Assembly: GCA_020543525.1 (NCBI GenBank)
Contig: JAHYIO010000028.1
Location: forward strand, 62,001 to 126,000
DNA: 64,000 bases
Origin: Coriolopsis trogii
Lineage: Eukaryota; Basidiomycota; Agaricomycetes; Polyporales; Polyporaceae
Reading direction: 5' to 3'
The notes beneath the pieces are model-generated. The model searched no databases. It saw nothing but the letters and a program-made list of their open reading frames with translations, and was not told where the DNA came from. Shown here piece after piece: positions 54,986-64,000 of this stretch. The first letter of the stretch is position 1. The number at the start of each line of letters is the position of its first letter. The position numbers and the translations under genes were made by a program.

Positions 54986-56023
54986 TCTAACCGGTTGCTT
55001 CTCTGTCAACACCTCTGTGCGCAACTCTTTGTACGTCGACTCTCTGCCCGTGCATTCCCACTTTCCTACTCTCTTGACTGTGCCCGCCGACACTGCTGCC
55101 AGGGGGACATTTCTGCGCTCGTGACGCAGCCCTGAGCGCTTTCGTAGTCAGTCTCTAGTTAACTATTGTTGTAACACCTGTTGTGCTCTCGAGGCACCTG
55201 GGTGATTCAGGCATCCCTCAGCCAGGCCACGCACTTGCGCCCGCCAGCTGTTGTACCCGGGGTGGTTAGCACCTTTGGACCGGAGGACAACCGTTCGGAC
55301 CCTCCTTACGATACCTTTTTGCCTCGGTAGTTACTATAGCGTTTCTTGGGCACAGTTGGCAACTTCTACCCAGATTGTCAGTAATTTCGGCTTACTGGCT
55401 CTCTGGTTCACCTCAAAAGGTGCCCCTGTCCACCTTCCTCGCACGTGGCACGTCAATCATCGCGTATACTTTGAACCACCGTTCTGGAGCCGACTCTTCC
55501 AGCATCTCCTCATTCCTCTGAGGCTGAAGTCGAGGACATCGTTGATACTTCGACAGAAGCATCCTCTGACAGCTCAGGCAACGAGGAATCCTGCGAAGAT
55601 CTTCCGCACGTTTGGGACTCTGACGAACAAGTCGACGCCCACCCTCAAAGCAACGGTTGGTACAATTGTGCCGTGAGCCCCTGTCCTCATCGGTACAACA
55701 ACGTTGCTTTACCGGAAGATCCCACATCGTTCGCTTGGCAACCTATCTCTCCCTACCAAGCAGACGAGGAGTTTCTTGCTGGAGTCAACACAGCTCTTCC
55801 AGTCGCATCCAATACACCCTACGACACACCACTTGTCGTAGCGCTTCCTCTCGCCTCTAACACCCCATACGACACCCCTCTCGTCGCATCTCCGTATCTC
55901 TCTCCAATCGAAACTCTCCCTCCTCCTCTCGTCACTGCGCTTCCATCTGTTGCGCCTATATCCTTCACTCTAGACTTTGACAACGAGGATTATCTCCACT
56001 CTTCTCAGTACCTGCTTTCAATC

Positions 56024-59000
56024 ATGGGAGACGTCAAAATCGACTCGATCCCTATCCTTTCTTCGGCGAACCAGTACAATGACTGGGCTGCAAAGCTCAA
56101 GGGGTACTTCATCTTCATGGGCTGTTGGGAGATTGTCGAAGGCACCAAGACTGAGCCCTCTCCTGCCAGTACTACCGCCACTGCGGCGGAGTTAGTCGCC
56201 ATAGAGGCATGGCAGAAGCTCAATGGGCAGGCTCGCGGCATGATGTACATGCGGGTCTCACCAAACTTCCACTACGTCCTTGATGCAAAGGTTCCAGGTC
56301 AACACGGTGCTGCTCCTCGTACCATGACAGCCGCTGAGACCTGGGCCGCCATCAAGACGAAGTTTGGCATGCCCAACAGTGCTCACGTCTGGGGCATGTT
56401 CGAGTCACTCATTGCAGAGCCTCGCATGAACGATTCGAAACCTCTCCAGGACCAGATGATGAAGATCATCAACCGCCTTCGCGACATCGATAGCAACGGC
56501 GTCAAGCTCAGCGAGACCATGCAGGCTCTCCTGTTGCTGTCGAAGGTCCCTGAGTCCTACCAGTCCATGGTTTCTGCGCTAATGGCTATTACGGACATCG
56601 ACAAGGTCACCCTCAACGACATCCAGTCGAAGACCTTGGCCGAGGAGTCGTTGCGCAAGAACGGACAGTCCGCCAACAAGGTCTCTCAGACCAAGCCGAA
56701 GCCTAAGGGTCCTTGCTCCTTCTGTGGCGGTAGTTCTCATCACGAGTCCAACTGCTACAAAAAGCACCCAGACAAGCGTCCCAAGGGCAAGAAGAAGGAG
56801 AAGGAGAGGGATAAGGACAAGGACAAGGGGAAGAACAAGGACACTACTTCTCATAGTCATGCACATGTTGTCTCTAAGTCTGTATCAGCTGTAAATGTAC
56901 TTTCGGGTCCCTCGAACATCGCTGCTTCTTTCTATGATGAGGCTATGACCTTGGACAGCTCGAAGTGGACCATGTGGCTTATGGACTCAGGAGCCTCCCA
57001 ACATATCACCGGCGACATGTCTGACTTCTCCACCTACCAGCCTTTCGAGACCACTGTTCCTTTTGGAACGGCTGCGTCAGGGGAAAGTAGTGTTATCCAT
57101 GCGCTTGGATCGGGAACGGTTGAAGGGATCGCATACATTGATAATCAGAGCGTCCCTGTCACCCTCAACAACGTCTACTATATCCCGCATGTGGAAGGTC
57201 GTCTTTTCTCGACGGGCTCCATCGAGCGCAATAGTTACTCCTTGTTCCAAGGCGAAGGTCGCATGTGTATCTTTGACAAGCTACCTGATGGTGCTGTCAA
57301 ACATGGTTCGACGATTCGTATCATGGGTCGAAAGATCCTTGAGGCAAGGTACAACCCGAATAGCAACACATACTGGACGCTCCTCGAACTCCGTAATGGT
57401 CAGCGTGTCCACCTCAATGTCCGTCGCTTCAAGACCTGGCATCATCGCTTTGGTCATGCGGGCAAGGACGTGCTGCGTCATCTTCCTAAGAACACCAAGG
57501 GAGTTGATGCCGTTGATCCTGCGGATGAAGAGCCATGTGGCAGATGTGCCTTTGGCAAATCCACTCGCGCCCCCTTTCCACCTTCTGAGAAGCATGCGAC
57601 TGAAGTTCTCGAGCTCATCCATACAGATCTCGATGGACCGATGCGTACTCAGGCTATCGGAGGATGGAAGTATTTTGCCGGTTTTATTGACGATTACTCT
57701 GGTCTTGCTTGCGCCTACTATCTTAAGTACAAGTCGGACGCTGTTAAAGCATTCCTCGACTATAAGGCATGGGCTGAGACTCAGACCGGTAAAAAGATCA
57801 AGAAGGTCCGCTCTGATCGAGGGGGGGAATATACGTCTGGCGAGTTCAGCGAGCTTCTTCGTTCGCATGGCATCGAGCACCAGAAGACAGTTGCGGGTTC
57901 ACCTCAACAGAATGGACGTGCTGAACGCTGGAACCGTACCATCACCGAGAAGGCCTTGTGTATGTTACATCAGGCTGGACTTAGTCACGGTTTCTGGCAA
58001 CTTGCCATCGATGCAGCCATTCATATCTACAATCGTCAACCTATGCGACGACACAAATGGCAATGCCCTATCACGTTGTGGGACGGTACTATACCGGATG
58101 TCTCCTACTTCCGTGTGTTTGGGTGCAAAGCCTTTGTGCATGTGCAGAAGGCGAAGCGTGAAGGGAAGCTCGACAAGAAGGCAGTCGAGATGATCTTCGT
58201 GGGGTATGAGCAGGGTTCCAAGGGGTATCGTTTTTGGAATCTGGCCACCCGCTCTATCGTTGTGTCCCGCGATGTGACATTCAATGAAGAGTCTTTCCCT
58301 GCACGTAAACTTCCTGGCAATCAACCTGTCGCCCCCAGTGATAATCCGTTTGTGAATGACCAGTCGGATGAGTCCTCGAACGACGACTCTGACTCGGTCG
58401 ATCCCAACGACATCCTGGACATTCCCCTTCCCATTCCGCTGGATGTCCCACCACCGCTTGATCACTCTGTAGACGATGATGCACCTGAAGCACCTGCTCC
58501 GGCTAATGCCCCTGATCGTCCTCCAACACCGCCGCCTGTTCCTGCTCCTCATCCTCCTCACCATCGTGGTCGTAACAGACCAGTGGGAGATAATCAGCCT
58601 AGCATTGCTCGTGACCGCCCTCGTCGTGACAAAGCAGGCATTCCCCACCCAAGTAGGACTCAGGACAACATCTATGGTGACGAGAACCCGGTTCATGTCG
58701 ATGCTCGGACAGATCCAGATGGAGATCAGTGGGAGGCAGAGACTTTCCTCGCTTTTCTCGCTGCTGCGCAGTCGAAAGCTGGTATTCCTCAATCCCACAA
58801 GGAGGCCATGCGATCGCCTGATGCTCCTAAGTGGCGTGAAGCTGAGAAGTCGGAGTATGATTCGCTCATCGAGAACAGGACCTGGGTACTTGTTCCTCGT
58901 CCTAAAGGTCGACACGTTGTCTCAAACCGCTGGGTTTATGATATTAAACATGATGGGCGATACAAAGCTCGTCTTGTTGCTCGCGGTTTTACTCAAGTAT

Positions 59001-60328
59001 GGGGTGAGGACTATCATGAGATGTTCTCTCCAGTTGCGCGGTTCGAGTCTATCCAGTATCTTCTTGCGCACGCTGCGCTTGAGGACTGGGACATCGAATC
59101 CATGGATGTCAAGACCGCGTTTCTGAATGGCGATCTCGAAGAGGAAATCTACATGGAACAGCCCGAAGGCTGGGTTGTTCCTGGGAAGGAAGACCACGTC
59201 TGTCTGCTCAAAAAGGCTATCTATGGTCTTAAACAGGCGTCGCGTCAGTGGAATGCGAAGATTCATCAGTCGCTTCTTGACTTGGGATTCCAACGGACTT
59301 ATTCTGATGCCGGGATCTATGTATATCGGCGACAAGGGGGGGAACACGTAACGATTGTCGTACTCTATGTCGACGATCTACTTCTCATCGGCAATCAGTC
59401 TAGCCACATCAAGCATGTCAAGCGCTCTCTTTCTAAGCAGTACAAGATGACAGACTTGGGACCAGTTAAGCGCTTCCTTGGTCTTCGCATCATTCGAGAT
59501 CGTTCTACTCGAACACTCGACATCGACCAGGAAGAATACATCCAGTCTGTTCTTGAGCGTTTCCAGATGGCTGACTATAAACCGTCGCGTACTCCTCTCC
59601 CTGCTGGTGCTGTTTTGGTGAAAACCGATCAGCCCGCTTCCGATTCGTTCAGGCAACGCTACCAGAGTCTTATTGGCAGTTTTTTGTACGCCATGCTCGG
59701 GACGCGCCCTGACATTGCTTTCGCTGTCACACGGTTGTCCAAGTACAATGCCAATCCCTCTGAAGCGCACATGAACTATGCCAAGTATGTCCTGCGTTAC
59801 CTTCAGGGAACAAAGGCATATCAGCTGCGCTACAAGGGAGCGTCTAATGACGGTCTGATCTCGTACTCAGATTCGGACTGGGCGGAAGACCGTGATGATC
59901 GGCACTCAACCTCTGGCTTTGTCTTCTTGATAGCAGGTGGTGCCGTATCGTGGGCATCGAGGCGTCAGCCTACCATTTCGCTCTCCTCGACCGAGGCGGA
60001 ATATAAAGCGGCCTCCGACACTTGTCGTCAGTTGGCATGGCTGAGGACCTTCGGCAATGAACTCAGAGATGACGTGACTGATCCGACGCCTTTGTGTCTC
60101 GACAACCAAGGCTCGATCTTCTTGTCCGTCAATCCAGTCATTGACCGTCGTACTAAGCACATAGAGATCCGTTATCACTTCATTTGTGAACAGGTCGAGA
60201 TGGGATCTGTTGAGATCTACTATGTTGCTTCTGAGGACCAATTGGCTGACCCTCTCACGAAGAACGTGCCTTACTCTAATCAGGCTAAGTTCGTTGAGGA
60301 GATAGGTCTTGTGTCCGTTGCATCTTGA
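56024..60328 (+). CDS. Copia gag-pol polyprotein
   Basis: Encodes capsid, protease, integrase, reverse transcriptase and RNase H in one frame; 1,434 residues from the ATG at 56024 (MGDVKIDSIPILSSANQYNDW). Approximate positions from that Met: gag 1-220; a CX2CX4HX4C zinc knuckle (CSFCGGSSHHESNC) at 231; Lys-rich linker; protease MDSGASQH at 320; pre-integrase WHHRFGH at 471 with the CxxC zinc pair; integrase core from HTDLDG (about 534) with FIDDYSG and SPQQNGRAER; RT with VSNRWVYDIK, VARGFTQVWG, YGLKQASRQW and YVDDLL (about 1115); RNase H with YSDSDWAED and SSTEAEYKA. No stop or frameshift. The frame stays open upstream to about 55476 without an ATG and includes a duplicated SNTPYDTPLV peptide. 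A spliced or non-ATG start is therefore possible. Confidence 0.94.
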   Translation: MGDVKIDSIPILSSANQYNDWAAKLKGYFIFMGCWEIVEGTKTEPSPASTTATAAELVAIEAWQKLNGQARGMMYMRVSPNFHYVLDAKVPGQHGAAPRTMTAAETWAAIKTKFGMPNSAHVWGMFESLIAEPRMNDSKPLQDQMMKIINRLRDIDSNGVKLSETMQALLLLSKVPESYQSMVSALMAITDIDKVTLNDIQSKTLAEESLRKNGQSANKVSQTKPKPKGPCSFCGGSSHHESNCYKKHPDKRPKGKKKEKERDKDKDKGKNKDTTSHSHAHVVSKSVSAVNVLSGPSNIAASFYDEAMTLDSSKWTMWLMDSGASQHITGDMSDFSTYQPFETTVPFGTAASGESSVIHALGSGTVEGIAYIDNQSVPVTLNNVYYIPHVEGRLFSTGSIERNSYSLFQGEGRMCIFDKLPDGAVKHGSTIRIMGRKILEARYNPNSNTYWTLLELRNGQRVHLNVRRFKTWHHRFGHAGKDVLRHLPKNTKGVDAVDPADEEPCGRCAFGKSTRAPFPPSEKHATEVLELIHTDLDGPMRTQAIGGWKYFAGFIDDYSGLACAYYLKYKSDAVKAFLDYKAWAETQTGKKIKKVRSDRGGEYTSGEFSELLRSHGIEHQKTVAGSPQQNGRAERWNRTITEKALCMLHQAGLSHGFWQLAIDAAIHIYNRQPMRRHKWQCPITLWDGTIPDVSYFRVFGCKAFVHVQKAKREGKLDKKAVEMIFVGYEQGSKGYRFWNLATRSIVVSRDVTFNEESFPARKLPGNQPVAPSDNPFVNDQSDESSNDDSDSVDPNDILDIPLPIPLDVPPPLDHSVDDDAPEAPAPANAPDRPPTPPPVPAPHPPHHRGRNRPVGDNQPSIARDRPRRDKAGIPHPSRTQDNIYGDENPVHVDARTDPDGDQWEAETFLAFLAAAQSKAGIPQSHKEAMRSPDAPKWREAEKSEYDSLIENRTWVLVPRPKGRHVVSNRWVYDIKHDGRYKARLVARGFTQVWGEDYHEMFSPVARFESIQYLLAHAALEDWDIESMDVKTAFLNGDLEEEIYMEQPEGWVVPGKEDHVCLLKKAIYGLKQASRQWNAKIHQSLLDLGFQRTYSDAGIYVYRRQGGEHVTIVVLYVDDLLLIGNQSSHIKHVKRSLSKQYKMTDLGPVKRFLGLRIIRDRSTRTLDIDQEEYIQSVLERFQMADYKPSRTPLPAGAVLVKTDQPASDSFRQRYQSLIGSFLYAMLGTRPDIAFAVTRLSKYNANPSEAHMNYAKYVLRYLQGTKAYQLRYKGASNDGLISYSDSDWAEDRDDRHSTSGFVFLIAGGAVSWASRRQPTISLSSTEAEYKAASDTCRQLAWLRTFGNELRDDVTDPTPLCLDNQGSIFLSVNPVIDRRTKHIEIRYHFICEQVEMGSVEIYYVASEDQLADPLTKNVPYSNQAKFVEEIGLVSVAS

Positions 60329-60330
60329 AC

Positions 60331-60339
60331 GAGTGGGAG
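60331..60339 (+). other. Polypurine tract of copia element
   Basis: GAGTGGGAG immediately before the 3' LTR, two bases after the polyprotein stop; the usual plus-strand DNA primer. Interrupted by one T. Confidence 0.7.
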
Positions 60340-60887
60340 TGTTGACATTCCGAATTTACGGCTCTACCGGTCCGGAGTTGTGCACACAACCTTTGTATGG
60401 TCATGTTTACTTATGTTTAGATAGCGCTTACTGTAGGCTACTTACCATATACGGTTTTCTCTACGAAACTACTGTACGTTCCCATGACCATATGGTTCCC
60501 TTGTCTTCCTGTGCGTTCTACAATGCACCGGAACTTTCTAGACCTTATGTCTTACTCAGAATACTCTCGGCTCTTACTCATACGCCAAGTACAGACTCTT
60601 ACTCATCGTCCTATGGTTAACATGTGACTGCTTCATTCGCTTACTCATGCACTCCTCTCTCTAGTATATAAGGCAGTCTGTTTGCTCCTCTGCTCTTCAG
60701 TCGTTCGCTCACTGACTGAAGAGTAAGTCCCACTCATTACTTATGCTCTACTACACTTTACTTACTAGTACTTGTAGTCTCTCTTTGTGTGACTTACAGG
60801 TACTGGACTATGCAATATAGTCGTTCGCTCACTGACTGAAGATCTCTCTTTGTGTGACTTATAGCCTTCCAGGTTCAGAGTTCATCA
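60340..60887 (+). repeat. 3' LTR of copia element
   Basis: 548 bases, same length as the 5' LTR with three substitutions and no indel. The internal 23-base motif occurs at 60700 and 60820. Followed by GATAT at 60888-60892. Confidence 0.95.
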
Positions 60888-60892
60888 GATAT
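60888..60892 (+). repeat. Copia target-site duplication, right copy (GATAT)
   Basis: Matches 54416-54420. Removing one copy with the element restores the transposase reading phase. Confidence 0.93.
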
Positions 60893-62093
60893 CGGACTTC
60901 TTTAGTGCAGAGGATGGTTGGTTGAGGTCGGAGGATGGGAAAGAGGCTGTGCAGCGTCTGTTCCGTCCAGGAAAGAATCGAGATAGCTATTTTAACAGTG
61001 ACGATGTCATCGAGCAATTCTGTCTCGCTGCACAGATCTCCTGAGCGCGCTGGCCCCATGAACACATCGTCTTTGTCGTTGACAACACCCCGACTCACTA
61101 GAAGCGAGCTCCCGATGCGCTGTCTGCCCGCCAGATGCCAAAGAACCCATCGCGCAATTTCGGCATTGATGTTAGTGTTACGGACGAGAATGGCAAGCCT
61201 GTTCACAGCCCCGACGGCAAGGTGCAGAAGAAGCGCATCCGCATGACCGACACAACACTCGAGAATGGTGCCGTCCAGGCTCTCTATTTTCCTGACGACC
61301 ATCCCGACCCCGACCTCCGTGGTGCCTTCAAGGGAATGGCACGTCTCCTCAAGGAGCGTGAATATTCAGGCATTGACCAGCTCCGTGTACAGTGCGACAA
61401 ATTCCAATGCCCTACTCCCCCTGCTGGTGTCCTCCCTCTTGAGCATTACACATGTCATCCCTGCTGCTGTCGGCGACTTCTCTACGAACAGCCCGACTTC
61501 CGTAACGTCAAGTCTTTGCTCAAAATCAAGATGGAGGCGCTCGGCTGCCAAGTACTCTTTCTACCCAAGTTTCACTGCGAGCTCAACCCCATTGAGCAAT
61601 GCTGGGGCTACGCCAAGCGACTGTACCGCTTGAAGCCCCCGTCTTTAAAGGAGGCGGACCTGGAGAGAAATCTGGTGGATTCTATTGACGCTGTTCCTCT
61701 TGAGTGCATGCGCCGGTGAGTTATACTGGTTACTCCTGTTTAGTTGTACACCTCTCACAGTATATTGCTGCAGGTTCTATACACGTGCCCTCCGGTTTGC
61801 TGATGCATACATGAAGGGACTCAATGGCAAGCAGGCTGCGTGGGCGAGCAAGAAATACCGCGGACACCGTGTAATTCCTGAGAACATTTTCACGGAACTC
61901 ACAGCTGCAGGACTAGCAGACATTTGATCACACTTTCATTCAATTTGCCAGCCCCTCCTATGATGATTTTCACACATTCGTTACACTACTCTACGCCCTC
62001 TTGAAATACTCGCTCGCTTGGACCATTGTCGTACAATATTAAGACTTAATCGTATTAGACGCCATGTTATTGCGTGATGTCACGGTGTGACAT

Positions 62094-62121
62094 AGTGGTC
62101 GAATCTGCTTTGGGCCTACCT
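62094..62121 (-). repeat. Right terminal inverted repeat of mariner-like element
   Basis: 28 bases, exact reverse complement of 52809-52836, followed by the TA target duplication at 62122-62123. Confidence 0.95.
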
Positions 62122-62282
62122 TAGCGCGCTTGAGCCGTTGACTCAAGACTCTCCATGCACGCTTGAACCTACTTGAACGCGGCCCAAAGCTACTGTATTG
62201 TCCGTCGCAGCCACGAGGTATCGCTCCCTGTCATATTCTGTTGGAATCGGAGTTGATCCTGCTATGTGCTAGGACGAAAAGG

Positions 62283-63738
62283 ATGTCGATCTTCTACGAT
62301 ATAATTCGCGAGAGCGAGCTGGAGAATGCATACAAGATAGAGTCGGAAGGTAGCGTATGGGCCGCGACCCCGACTGTGTCTCTTTTTAGGGCGTGAATTC
62401 ATCATATGCACACGCGCAGGGTACCCAGAGGACGAGGCCGCTAGCCTCGAAGCGTTCAGGTTAGCCCTTGTCGGACTGGCACGCTACACAAGTGTCTACG
62501 AGTCTGTTCTAACAATCCGCCGCTCCTAGGTACCGACAGTCCCAAGCCCCCGAACTCTTCCTTGGCGCGTACCTTCCCAGTGACACGGGGAAGGACCGTC
62601 AACTGATTGGATATGTCTGCGCTACGCTCTCCCCCGACGACACGCTCACGCACGCCTCGATGGCGACCCACGTCCCTGGGGGCCGCTCGGTCTGCATCCA
62701 CTCCGTATGCGTCGCCTCGGAGCAGCGTCGTTCTGGAGTCGGCCTCAGTCTCGTCAAAGAATATGTCTCCCGCCTCGCGTCGACAGGGAAGTACGACCGT
62801 GTCCTGCTCATCGCGCACGACCACCTTCGCGGGTTCTACGAGCGTGCCGGGTTCGAATGGATCGGACCGAGCGCGGTCGTGCATGGGGCGCGGCCCTGGT
62901 TCGAGATGCGCAAGGATCTCACCCCAGCGTCCGACATAACGCAGACCAGCACTCCCGAGACCACGCTAGCGAAGTCGCCCAGCAACGACAATGAACAGGA
63001 TATCAACGCAATCCCACAAGCTCCTACCAACTCAAACCTCCCCCCAGGCGTCTGGGAGGCCCTCCTCTCCTCCTCCTCGCGCAGTCGGCCAGCCGCGCGC
63101 GTCCTCTCTGCGTTCCCCAACGCCGTGCAGGACGTCGTCGACCCCGACCCCGCCACAGGCGCAGCAGCCAACAAGCACGACCTCCTCTGTCCCCGGCCCG
63201 GCTGCGGGAGCGTGATCCTCAAGGCCGGGGTCGCGCGCTGGGTCGAGCGTGCGAGCGTTCAGCTTGACTGTCTCTCGCAGTCGCCGTCTAGCGAGGACAC
63301 AAAACTGCCAGAGTATTTGGGAGCGCTGCCCGCGCCGCCTGCGACGGCGCAGTGGTGGCTCGTCGTGCCGAACGCGATGGTGTTTGAGAACATTGGATTC
63401 TCGAGGGCCGTGCAGGGTGCGTCAGCTTTCTATTGGCTTTGAGCTGTCTCTCTCCTTTCTTCTGGTTCCGTGTCAGACCCGAGCTGACGACGAATCATGG
63501 GACACTGACGGTTGTTTCCTCTCTCACTACGTGTGGACTGCCTGATCCATCACTGCCGTCCACACACATGCATCACTACGCGCTGCTGTTCGTCGCTGCG
63601 CGGACGATAGGCTCTAGAGGAGGGGCCCGGATGAAATTCCTTGCGTGCGCCGAGTGTGACCTCGGACCGCTGGGCTGGTGCGAGGAAGGCGGAAGTGAGT
63701 TCTGGCTGGCGTGCAATAGGGTCGGCTATCGCGTGTAA
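62283..63738 (+). CDS. GNAT N-acetyltransferase fused to Mss4/Dss4-type domain
   Basis: The N-terminal half is an acetyl-CoA-dependent acetyltransferase resembling arylalkylamine/serotonin N-acetyltransferases: LFLGAYLP, LIGYVCATL, then VCIHSVCVASEQRRSGVG, the acetyl-CoA loop, and FYERAGFEWIG. After a Ser/Pro-rich linker the C-terminal part is Mss4/Rabif-like. It has DLLCPRPGCGSVIL (first zinc pair), WWLVVPNAMVFENIGFSR, then MKFLACAECDLGPLGW (second pair) and EFWLACNRVGYRV. Mss4 proteins bind nucleotide-free Rab GTPases. Exons 62283-62349, 62421-62460 and 62530-63416 are firm. The last intron is less sure: 63417-63619 (203 bases, unusual GAG acceptor) gives 370 residues in phase and joins FSRAVQ to GGARMKFL as in Mss4. 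Stopping at 63442 would lose the second zinc pair. The start lies 160 bases from the mariner-like element. Confidence 0.85.
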
Positions 63739-64000
63739 CGCGGTGTCGGGGTAGCCCGAGATAGATGGGGGCGGTTAAAGTGACCGGAGCTGTAGTCGAC
63801 TGTGCTTGTACGAACAACAGAACCACAACCTGTGCCTAGTCTGCTCGTAAACTCTAAATTGGCATGGGCGCTATCGGCCGCGAGCGTCGGACACGGATGA
63901 GTAGCAAGTGCACCTTTCGAAGTCCGAAGCTCATGGGCCTCTGGAAGTCCAGCGTAAGGACGTTTCTTTGCGGAGATTCCTACACTCCGTTCACAGTTGC
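63739..64000. other. 3' flank of GNAT-Mss4 gene
   Basis: No coding or structural signal; probably 3' UTR and intergenic sequence. Confidence 0.35.

What the first reader, a model, noticed from the sequence alone, without database searches (positions are those of the whole stretch)
62283..63738. An acetyltransferase and a Rab-binding Mss4 domain in one protein
The same spliced frame carries a complete GNAT core (IHSVCV...RRSGVG, FYERAGFEW) and an Mss4/Dss4 domain with both zinc cysteine pairs. Mss4 proteins are usually small and stand alone. A fusion suggests an acetyltransferase directed to Rab GTPases or membranes, or acetylation linked to vesicle traffic. Whether other fungi share the fusion is unknown to me.
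Basis: partly seen in the sequence, partly recalled or inferred. Interest (0 to 1): 0.75.

Follow-up and report, generated by a model that had tools for sequence, protein, structure and literature searches.

The report
Acetyltransferase fused to Rab chaperone domain
In this mushroom-type fungus one gene makes a protein that joins a serotonin-acetyltransferase-type enzyme to an Mss4-type handler of Rab proteins, the switches of membrane traffic; many relatives share the fusion, though what joining the two achieves is still unknown.

Summary
Window 62283-63738 (+) holds a four-exon gene for one protein of about 373 residues: an AANAT-type (serotonin/arylalkylamine N-acetyltransferase) GNAT domain, a variable linker, and an Mss4/Dss4 domain with all four zinc cysteines. 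The GNAT core, the linker and two thirds of Mss4 lie in one unbroken ORF, so the fusion does not depend on the last intron. It gave the only Mss4 matches and the only close AANAT-type match found in this genome. All 120 listed homologues (of 353 passing) carry both domains; the named ones are Agaricomycetes. A rust protein (GNAT plus 29 Mss4 positions, by my own profile only) suggests an older origin. Active-site and zinc/Rab-loop residues are nearly invariant; the linker is not. Some lineages carry the halves as separate genes, and at least fifteen species list the fusion plus an Mss4-only protein. Best reading: two working modules on a flexible tether, a small-amine acetyltransferase (non-vertebrate AANAT/Paa1 type) and a Rab holdase. 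I found no paper describing the fusion in the held library. No structure prediction could be run.

The parts
62283..63738 (+). whole gene, ATG to stop (four exons, about 373 residues)
   Evidence: aligns over 100% of its length with the 369-residue Trametes maxima protein at 66% identity
62283..62349 (+). exon 1
   Evidence: first Met of the open frame 62142-62396; GT donor at 62350; the spliced reading GYPEDEAASLEAF is the same in P0002
62350..62419 (+). intron 1 (70 bases)
   Evidence: GTAGCG...CGCAG
62420..62459 (+). exon 2
62460..62529 (+). intron 2 (70 bases)
   Evidence: GTTAGC...CCTAG
62530..63416 (+). exon 3: GNAT core, linker, conserved pre-Mss4 segment, first two thirds of Mss4
   Evidence: one open frame 62513-63442; both Pfam domains above cut-off
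63417..63610 (+). intron 3; acceptor 63610 favoured over 63619 and 63622
   Evidence: donor AGG|GTGCGT, acceptor GATAG; spacing against homologues
63611..63738 (+). exon 4: end of Mss4 domain with second zinc pair, and stop
   Evidence: PF04421 positions 71-102 at window 63628-63723, E 2.6e-6
62283..62926 (+). GNAT domain of AANAT type (residues 1-168, introns inside)
62693..62701 (+). C91-I92-H93: equivalents of ovine AANAT H120 (here Cys) and H122 (kept)
   Evidence: alignment; C91 and H93 in 121 of 121 sequences
62837..62839 (+). Y139, equivalent of AANAT Y168
   Evidence: 120 of 121
62927..63037 (+). variable linker
   Evidence: mean pairwise identity 0.115 in 64 chosen homologues
63038..63142 (+). 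PxGxxEAL segment, moderately conserved, also seen in Mss4-only proteins of Agaricomycetes
   Evidence: mean identity 0.442; read in standalone sequences
63170..63738 (+). Mss4/Dss4 domain (intron 3 inside)
   Evidence: PF04421 E 1.1e-17; MSS4 chains of the PDB E about 1e-12
63188..63205 (+). first zinc pair C256-X4-C261
   Evidence: both Cys in 120 of 120 full fused and 99 of 99 full Mss4-only proteins
63646..63657 (+). second zinc pair C341-X2-C344 (370-residue numbering)
   Evidence: 120 and 119 of 120 full fused; 99 and 98 of 99 full Mss4-only proteins

Best explanation
One bifunctional protein of two working modules on a flexible tether. The C-terminal Mss4 module is this fungus's Dss4/RABIF: it binds nucleotide-poor exocytic Rab proteins (Sec4/Rab8 type) through its FENIGF loop and zinc-stapled sheet and holds or reloads them. 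The N-terminal module is a non-vertebrate AANAT-type enzyme that moves acetyl from acetyl-CoA to a small primary amine, with His93 and Tyr139 as the proton-handling residues (their roles are recalled from AANAT). Shown here: the fusion, family membership, near-invariance of those residues, single matches in this genome, wide sharing, and splitting in some lineages. Inferred: both activities, the small-amine substrate, and that the tether serves dosage and co-location rather than a shared reaction.
For: Both domains above cut-off in one ORF. A GNAT profile hits AANAT chains at 68-72 bits, the next GNAT at 34 bits. H93 121/121, Y139 120/121; zinc and FENxGF residues in 118-120 of 120 full fused proteins. 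GNAT and Mss4 are similarly conserved (0.59, 0.64 identity) while the linker drifts (0.115) in 64 chosen homologues, and the span between the domains ranges from 40 to 125 residues. Only Mss4 matches found in the genome; only close AANAT match found. Separate genes for both halves in Tetrapyrgos, Marasmius, Collybiopsis and Gymnopus, on contigs of different length. Yeast Paa1 is cited as having spermine as main in vivo substrate (PMC10220653, passages); MSS4 acts as Rab holdase (PMC7818423, passages).
Against: No activity was measured. AANAT H120 is Cys here, and the P-loop Gly105 is G in only 143 of 204 fused proteins, so catalysis may be weak in part of the family. If the modules were fully independent, keeping them joined in many Agaricomycetes would need another reason. 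For the Mss4 half, PMC7604616 (passages) reports less active RAB13 after loss of RABIF and treats it as an exchange factor as well as a chaperone, so 'holdase' may be too narrow.
Confidence: 0.5

Rival explanations
1. The Mss4 half brings Rab proteins to the GNAT, which acetylates them on a lysine.
For: Two halves in one chain, each with its expected active or binding residues; wide sharing of the fusion; a long flexible linker could let the GNAT reach a bound Rab.
Against: The GNAT is nearest to small-amine acetyltransferases. Linker length and sequence vary freely. Halves live apart in some lineages, and Mycena-group species list Mss4-only proteins besides the fusion. One narrow library search, asking for the phrase lysine acetylation of Rab, gave nothing.
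Confidence: 0.15
2. The GNAT is a weak enzyme or acetyl-CoA sensor that tunes the Rab chaperone to the carbon state of the cell.
For: His120 of AANAT is Cys; P-loop Gly105 is replaced by K, R, H or Q in 51 of 204 fused proteins.
Against: H93 and Y139 are kept in nearly all, which a pure sensor would not need; Gly105 is also replaced in 7 of 38 GNAT-only proteins.
Confidence: 0.12
3. Two neighbouring genes merged by the gene model.
For: In some species the listing has the two halves as separate models on contigs of equal length (Serpula, Daedalea, Fistulina, Punctularia).
Against: Here GNAT and two thirds of Mss4 share one ORF without stop or intron; 204 of 359 fetched proteins join them, 84 of these with a partial Mss4; four Mss4-only models look like cut forms of the fused frame (Artomyces, Daedalea, Hypholoma, Gloeophyllum).
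Confidence: 0.02

Closest known systems
Mss4/Dss4 (RABIF), Pfam PF04421; structures 1fwq, 1hxr, 2fu5
   Same: Whole domain, four zinc cysteines, FENxGF loop, GPxGW stretch
   Different: First zinc pair is mostly CX4C (194 of 204 fused) where the solved MSS4 chain reads C-x2-C; extra N-terminal PxGxxEAL segment; joined to an acetyltransferase
AANAT family, non-vertebrate type (yeast Paa1; the S. pombe name C9.02c is carried by P0033 and P0100)
   Same: Best solved matches are AANAT chains; LTHxSMxxH, IHS and FYxxxGF blocks; H122 and Y168 equivalents
   Different: H120 equivalent is Cys, so it lacks the His pair of the vertebrate type; joined to Mss4
The same fusion in database entries named acyl-CoA N-acyltransferase or Mss4-like protein (Trametes, Ganoderma, Schizophyllum, Mycena and others)
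   Same: Same order, both domains
   Different: Only short entry names seen; no description of the fusion found in the held library

Membership tests
Mss4/Dss4 | Profile match above curated cut-off over the whole domain | tested here: met
   PF04421 64.6 bits, cut-off 22.6, positions 2-102 of 104
Mss4/Dss4 | Two zinc cysteine pairs | tested here: met
   C256/C261 and C341/C344 present; first pair spaced CX4C, not CX2C
Mss4/Dss4 | FENxGF loop that faces the Rab | tested here: met
   F321 119, E322 118, N323 119, G325 119, F326 119 of 120 full fused proteins; that this loop faces the Rab is recalled
Mss4/Dss4 | Rab binding, nucleotide release or holdase activity | not testable with these tools
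   no assay
GNAT superfamily | Acetyl-CoA P-loop (Q/R)xxGx(G/A) (motif recalled) | tested here: met
   RRSGVG at residues 102-107 of the window protein; Gly105 in 143 of 204 fused relatives
AANAT | Nearest solved relatives are AANAT | tested here: met
   68-72 bits against 34 for the next GNAT
AANAT, vertebrate type | Pair of catalytic histidines | tested here: not met
   H120 equivalent is C91, H122 equivalent is H93; so non-vertebrate type only
AANAT | Acetylation of arylalkylamines or polyamines | not testable with these tools
   no assay

The most novel reading that the evidence does not exclude
The Mss4 half catches Rab proteins as they leave the ribosome (as RABIF does with RAB13) and the GNAT half acetylates the nascent Rab's own N-terminus or a lysine on it, so that in many mushrooms Rab folding, loading and acetylation are one coupled step. 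Rosetta-stone logic would then predict that yeast Dss4 and Paa1 also work together.
Probability: 0.07. Interest if true: 0.85.

Novelty: new variant of a known kind. Interest (0 to 1): 0.5.

Why it matters
Both halves are known families with well-studied single-domain members, but their union, shared by many basidiomycetes, turned up in none of my library searches. It makes a question testable: whether amine or acetyl-CoA metabolism is tied to Rab-driven secretion. Nature has also done the control: lineages with fused, separate, and fused-plus-Mss4-only proteins can be compared. For annotation, entries named only acyl-CoA N-acyltransferase hide the Mss4 half, which gave the only Mss4 matches found in the genome examined.

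Tried and rejected
Merged gene model: rejected, see rivals. Fusion private to this species: rejected. Fusion limited to Agaricomycetes: doubtful, because a Cronartium (Pucciniomycotina) protein has GNAT followed by 29 Mss4 profile positions at 22.5 bits; 12,100 shuffled tails reached at most 8.8 bits. Against this, Pfam's own Mss4 model does not list that piece, nor the like pieces of two Tulasnella and one Clavulina protein, at E up to 1, so these four rest on my own profile. The Cronartium piece also lacks the PxGxxEAL segment (read). Single fusion origin with later splits against several origins: not settled; deep branches of the trees are weak. The trees use hand-picked named proteins: 37 from the fused lists, 39 from the Mss4-only list and 23 from the GNAT-only list, out of 359 fetched. 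The Mss4 tree needs 14 changes of the label fused (10 if the four cut models count as fused; 6 are forced by well-supported branches), the GNAT tree 6 (4 forced). GNAT loss in Suillus, Amanita or Auriculariales: not claimed, because listings stop at 120 rows.

No RNA family match at gathering score in window 55000-64000. NCBIfam gave 9 matches, none reaching its cut-off. The first splice enumeration found none because of an off-by-one start, mended.

Full report
WHAT IS THERE. The gene runs from ATG 62283 to stop 63736-63738 on the + strand in four exons. Exons 1-2 encode the start of the GNAT fold. Exon 3 (62530-63416) encodes the rest of it, a linker and about two thirds of an Mss4 domain in one open frame; exon 4 finishes Mss4. 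The spliced 370-residue model matches PF04421 (Mss4) at E 1.1e-17 and three GNAT families above cut-off. The single ORF 62513-63442, which needs no choice of splice sites, already carries both domains above cut-off. Homologue spacing and acceptor sequence favour acceptor 63610 and hence 373 residues: 12 residues between GF[ST] and K-x-x-x-CAEC against 9 in the 370 model, where the 105 of 120 homologues that could be counted have at least 10.

WHICH GNAT. Against solved structures the window protein's GNAT matches arylalkylamine/serotonin N-acetyltransferase (best E 1.6e-12) and its Mss4 half matches MSS4 (best E 1.1e-12). A profile of eight fused GNATs gives AANAT chains 68-72 bits and the next GNAT 34 bits. 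By the printed alignment, AANAT H120 falls on C91, H122 on H93 and Y168 on Y139; that these residues are catalytic is recalled, and PMC2897805 (passages) states that a pair of histidines facilitates catalysis in vertebrate AANAT and that non-vertebrate ones lack the vertebrate features. C91 and H93 are kept in 121 of 121 sequences (window plus 120) and Y139 in 120 of 121. Over all 204 fetched fused proteins C91 is kept in 199, H93 in 201 and Y139 in 201; the rest are gaps except two (C91) and one (Y139). In the 38 GNAT-only proteins C91 is kept in 37, H93 in 35 and Y139 in 38. The P-loop glycine 105 is less steady: G in 143 of 204 fused and 31 of 38 GNAT-only proteins.

WHICH MSS4. All four zinc cysteines are kept in 119-120 of 120 full fused proteins and 98-99 of 99 full Mss4-only proteins, and the five FENxGF positions tested in 118-119 of 120. 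The first pair is CX4C in 194 of 204 fused proteins, two residues longer than in the solved MSS4. The only PF04421 matches found in the genome are the two pieces of this gene; a search with its GNAT finds only this gene plus one chance-level hit (E 0.24).

WHO ELSE HAS IT. The full-length search passed 353 proteins and listed 120, all of which carry both domains by profiles built here. The domains precomputed in the listing lack Mss4 for P0024 and P0077 and GNAT for P0015. Pfam finds Mss4 and GNAT in 64 of the 64 that I chose and aligned. Two further searches used one domain each, so their length limits favour split or cut forms; counts from them are no measure of frequency, and in the second only the 7,999 candidates sharing most words were scored. 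Of the 359 proteins fetched in the three searches, 120 hold GNAT plus full Mss4, 84 GNAT plus a partial Mss4, 99 full Mss4 only, 18 partial Mss4 only and 38 GNAT only. Many partial forms stop near Mss4 position 27-45 or 76-80; I take these ends for introns, as in P0001, which reads into the same intron as the window ORF. Named holders of the fusion span Polyporales, Agaricales, Boletales, Russulales, Gloeophyllales, Jaapia and, by the Mss4 start alone, Tulasnella and Clavulina (order names other than Cantharellales for Tulasnella are recalled). One rust protein, P0352 of Cronartium quercuum (Pucciniomycotina), has GNAT plus Mss4 profile positions 1-29 at 22.5 bits, against a maximum of 8.8 bits in 12,100 shuffled tails; Pfam alone does not see it, and it lacks the PxGxxEAL segment.

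SPLIT FORMS. Mss4-only proteins of about 160-200 residues occur in Suillus, Amanita, Lentinula, Armillaria, Auricularia, Serendipita and others. Most of those that I read carry an N-terminal PxGxxEAL-type segment like the one that precedes Mss4 in the fusion; a simple pattern for it is met in 100 of 120 full fused and 79 of 99 full Mss4-only proteins. Four Mss4-only entries look like cut models of fused genes: Artomyces P0207 begins inside the GNAT, Daedalea P0154 begins at the Met that ends its GNAT piece, and Hypholoma P0123 and Gloeophyllum P0192 begin in the like place. Four species have both halves as separate entries on contigs of the same length (Serpula, Daedalea, Fistulina, Punctularia), probably one locus; four have them on contigs of different length under one assembly name (Tetrapyrgos, Marasmius, Collybiopsis, Gymnopus), a real split (lengths, compared). 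At least fifteen species, fourteen of them Mycena or Roridomyces, list a fused protein and also an Mss4-only one, two of which are partial or short (hand tally; list length; assemblies not matched). Six of the Mycena-group Mss4-only proteins form a well-supported group apart from the fused ones (97), so these are second genes and not cut models. On the Mss4 tree (77 hand-picked rows) fused and separate forms are interleaved, 14 changes against 25.8 in shuffles. On the GNAT tree (61 rows) six changes are needed; the fused Moniliophthora protein sits with the separate Marasmius GNATs (98/93), while the outgroup GNATs chosen (Glomus, Mortierella and others) are all separate. Deep branches are weak. 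The simplest history is an early basidiomycete fusion with later splits or duplications; it is not proven.

HOW IT PROBABLY WORKS. The two domains are conserved alike (mean pairwise identity 0.59 and 0.64) and the linker hardly at all (0.115) in 64 chosen homologues, with 40-125 residues between the domains, the PxGxxEAL segment included, median 61 in 120. This looks like two folded modules on a string, not one fixed machine. MSS4 is held to be mainly a Rab chaperone (PMC6767298, passages; PMC7818423, passages); PMC7604616 (passages) reports that it binds RAB13 during translation and also treats it as an exchange factor, and yeast Dss4p is assayed as a Sec4p exchange factor in PMC3171412 (passages). 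Yeast Paa1 is cited as having spermine as main in vivo substrate in PMC10220653, which itself saw arylalkylamine acetylation in E. coli but no gain in yeast (passages). I therefore commit to a small-amine acetyltransferase tethered to a Rab holdase or exchange factor, with co-dosage or co-location as the gain, at 0.5. Rab acetylation in cis is possible (0.15); an acetyl-CoA sensing role is possible (0.12).

LITERATURE. Searches of the held library for Mss4 with GNAT and fungi, serotonin N-acetyltransferase with Mss4 and fusion, and Mss4 with AANAT found no paper. Any two of Mss4, Dss4 and acetyltransferase domain found 13 papers, none with the acetyltransferase term. The 15 listed of 2,003 papers in a broader search had no Mss4-like mention. 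A survey of eukaryotic GNATs, PMC7790372, holds neither Mss4 nor fusion nor fused in its main text (term count). Most papers of subscription journals are not held, so this is weak evidence of absence.

LIMITS. No transcript data, no structure model, no fungal genome collection beyond the window's own. The three protein searches listed 120 rows each; 233, 360 and 278 further passing proteins were not seen.

Noticed in passing
window 61102-61719 +: ORF resembling the end of a DDE_3 transposase (PF13358 E 4.8e-5, below the curated cut-off), about 560 bases upstream of the gene.
   Followed up: partly
L006:5355-5933 - (beyond the window end, window scale 64355-64933): The downstream neighbour on the opposite strand has a weak SNARE-like stretch (PF05739 E 0.014, below cut-off), which would also be a membrane-traffic gene.
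   Followed up: partly
L006:7339-8855 -: ORFs with a Zn2Cys6 cluster and a fungal transcription factor domain, both above cut-off.
   Followed up: no
P0260 and P0266 (Trametes maxima, T. meyenii): A GNAT-only paralogue lies on a contig of the same length as that of the fused gene (2026438 and 1958456), so possibly the same contig; no such copy was found in the window's genome.
   Followed up: no
P0024 (Earliella scabrosa), P0077, P0015 (Trametes elegans): The precomputed domains lack Mss4 for the first two and GNAT for the third, yet my own profiles find both in all 120 listed; precomputed domains undercount the fusion.
   Followed up: partly
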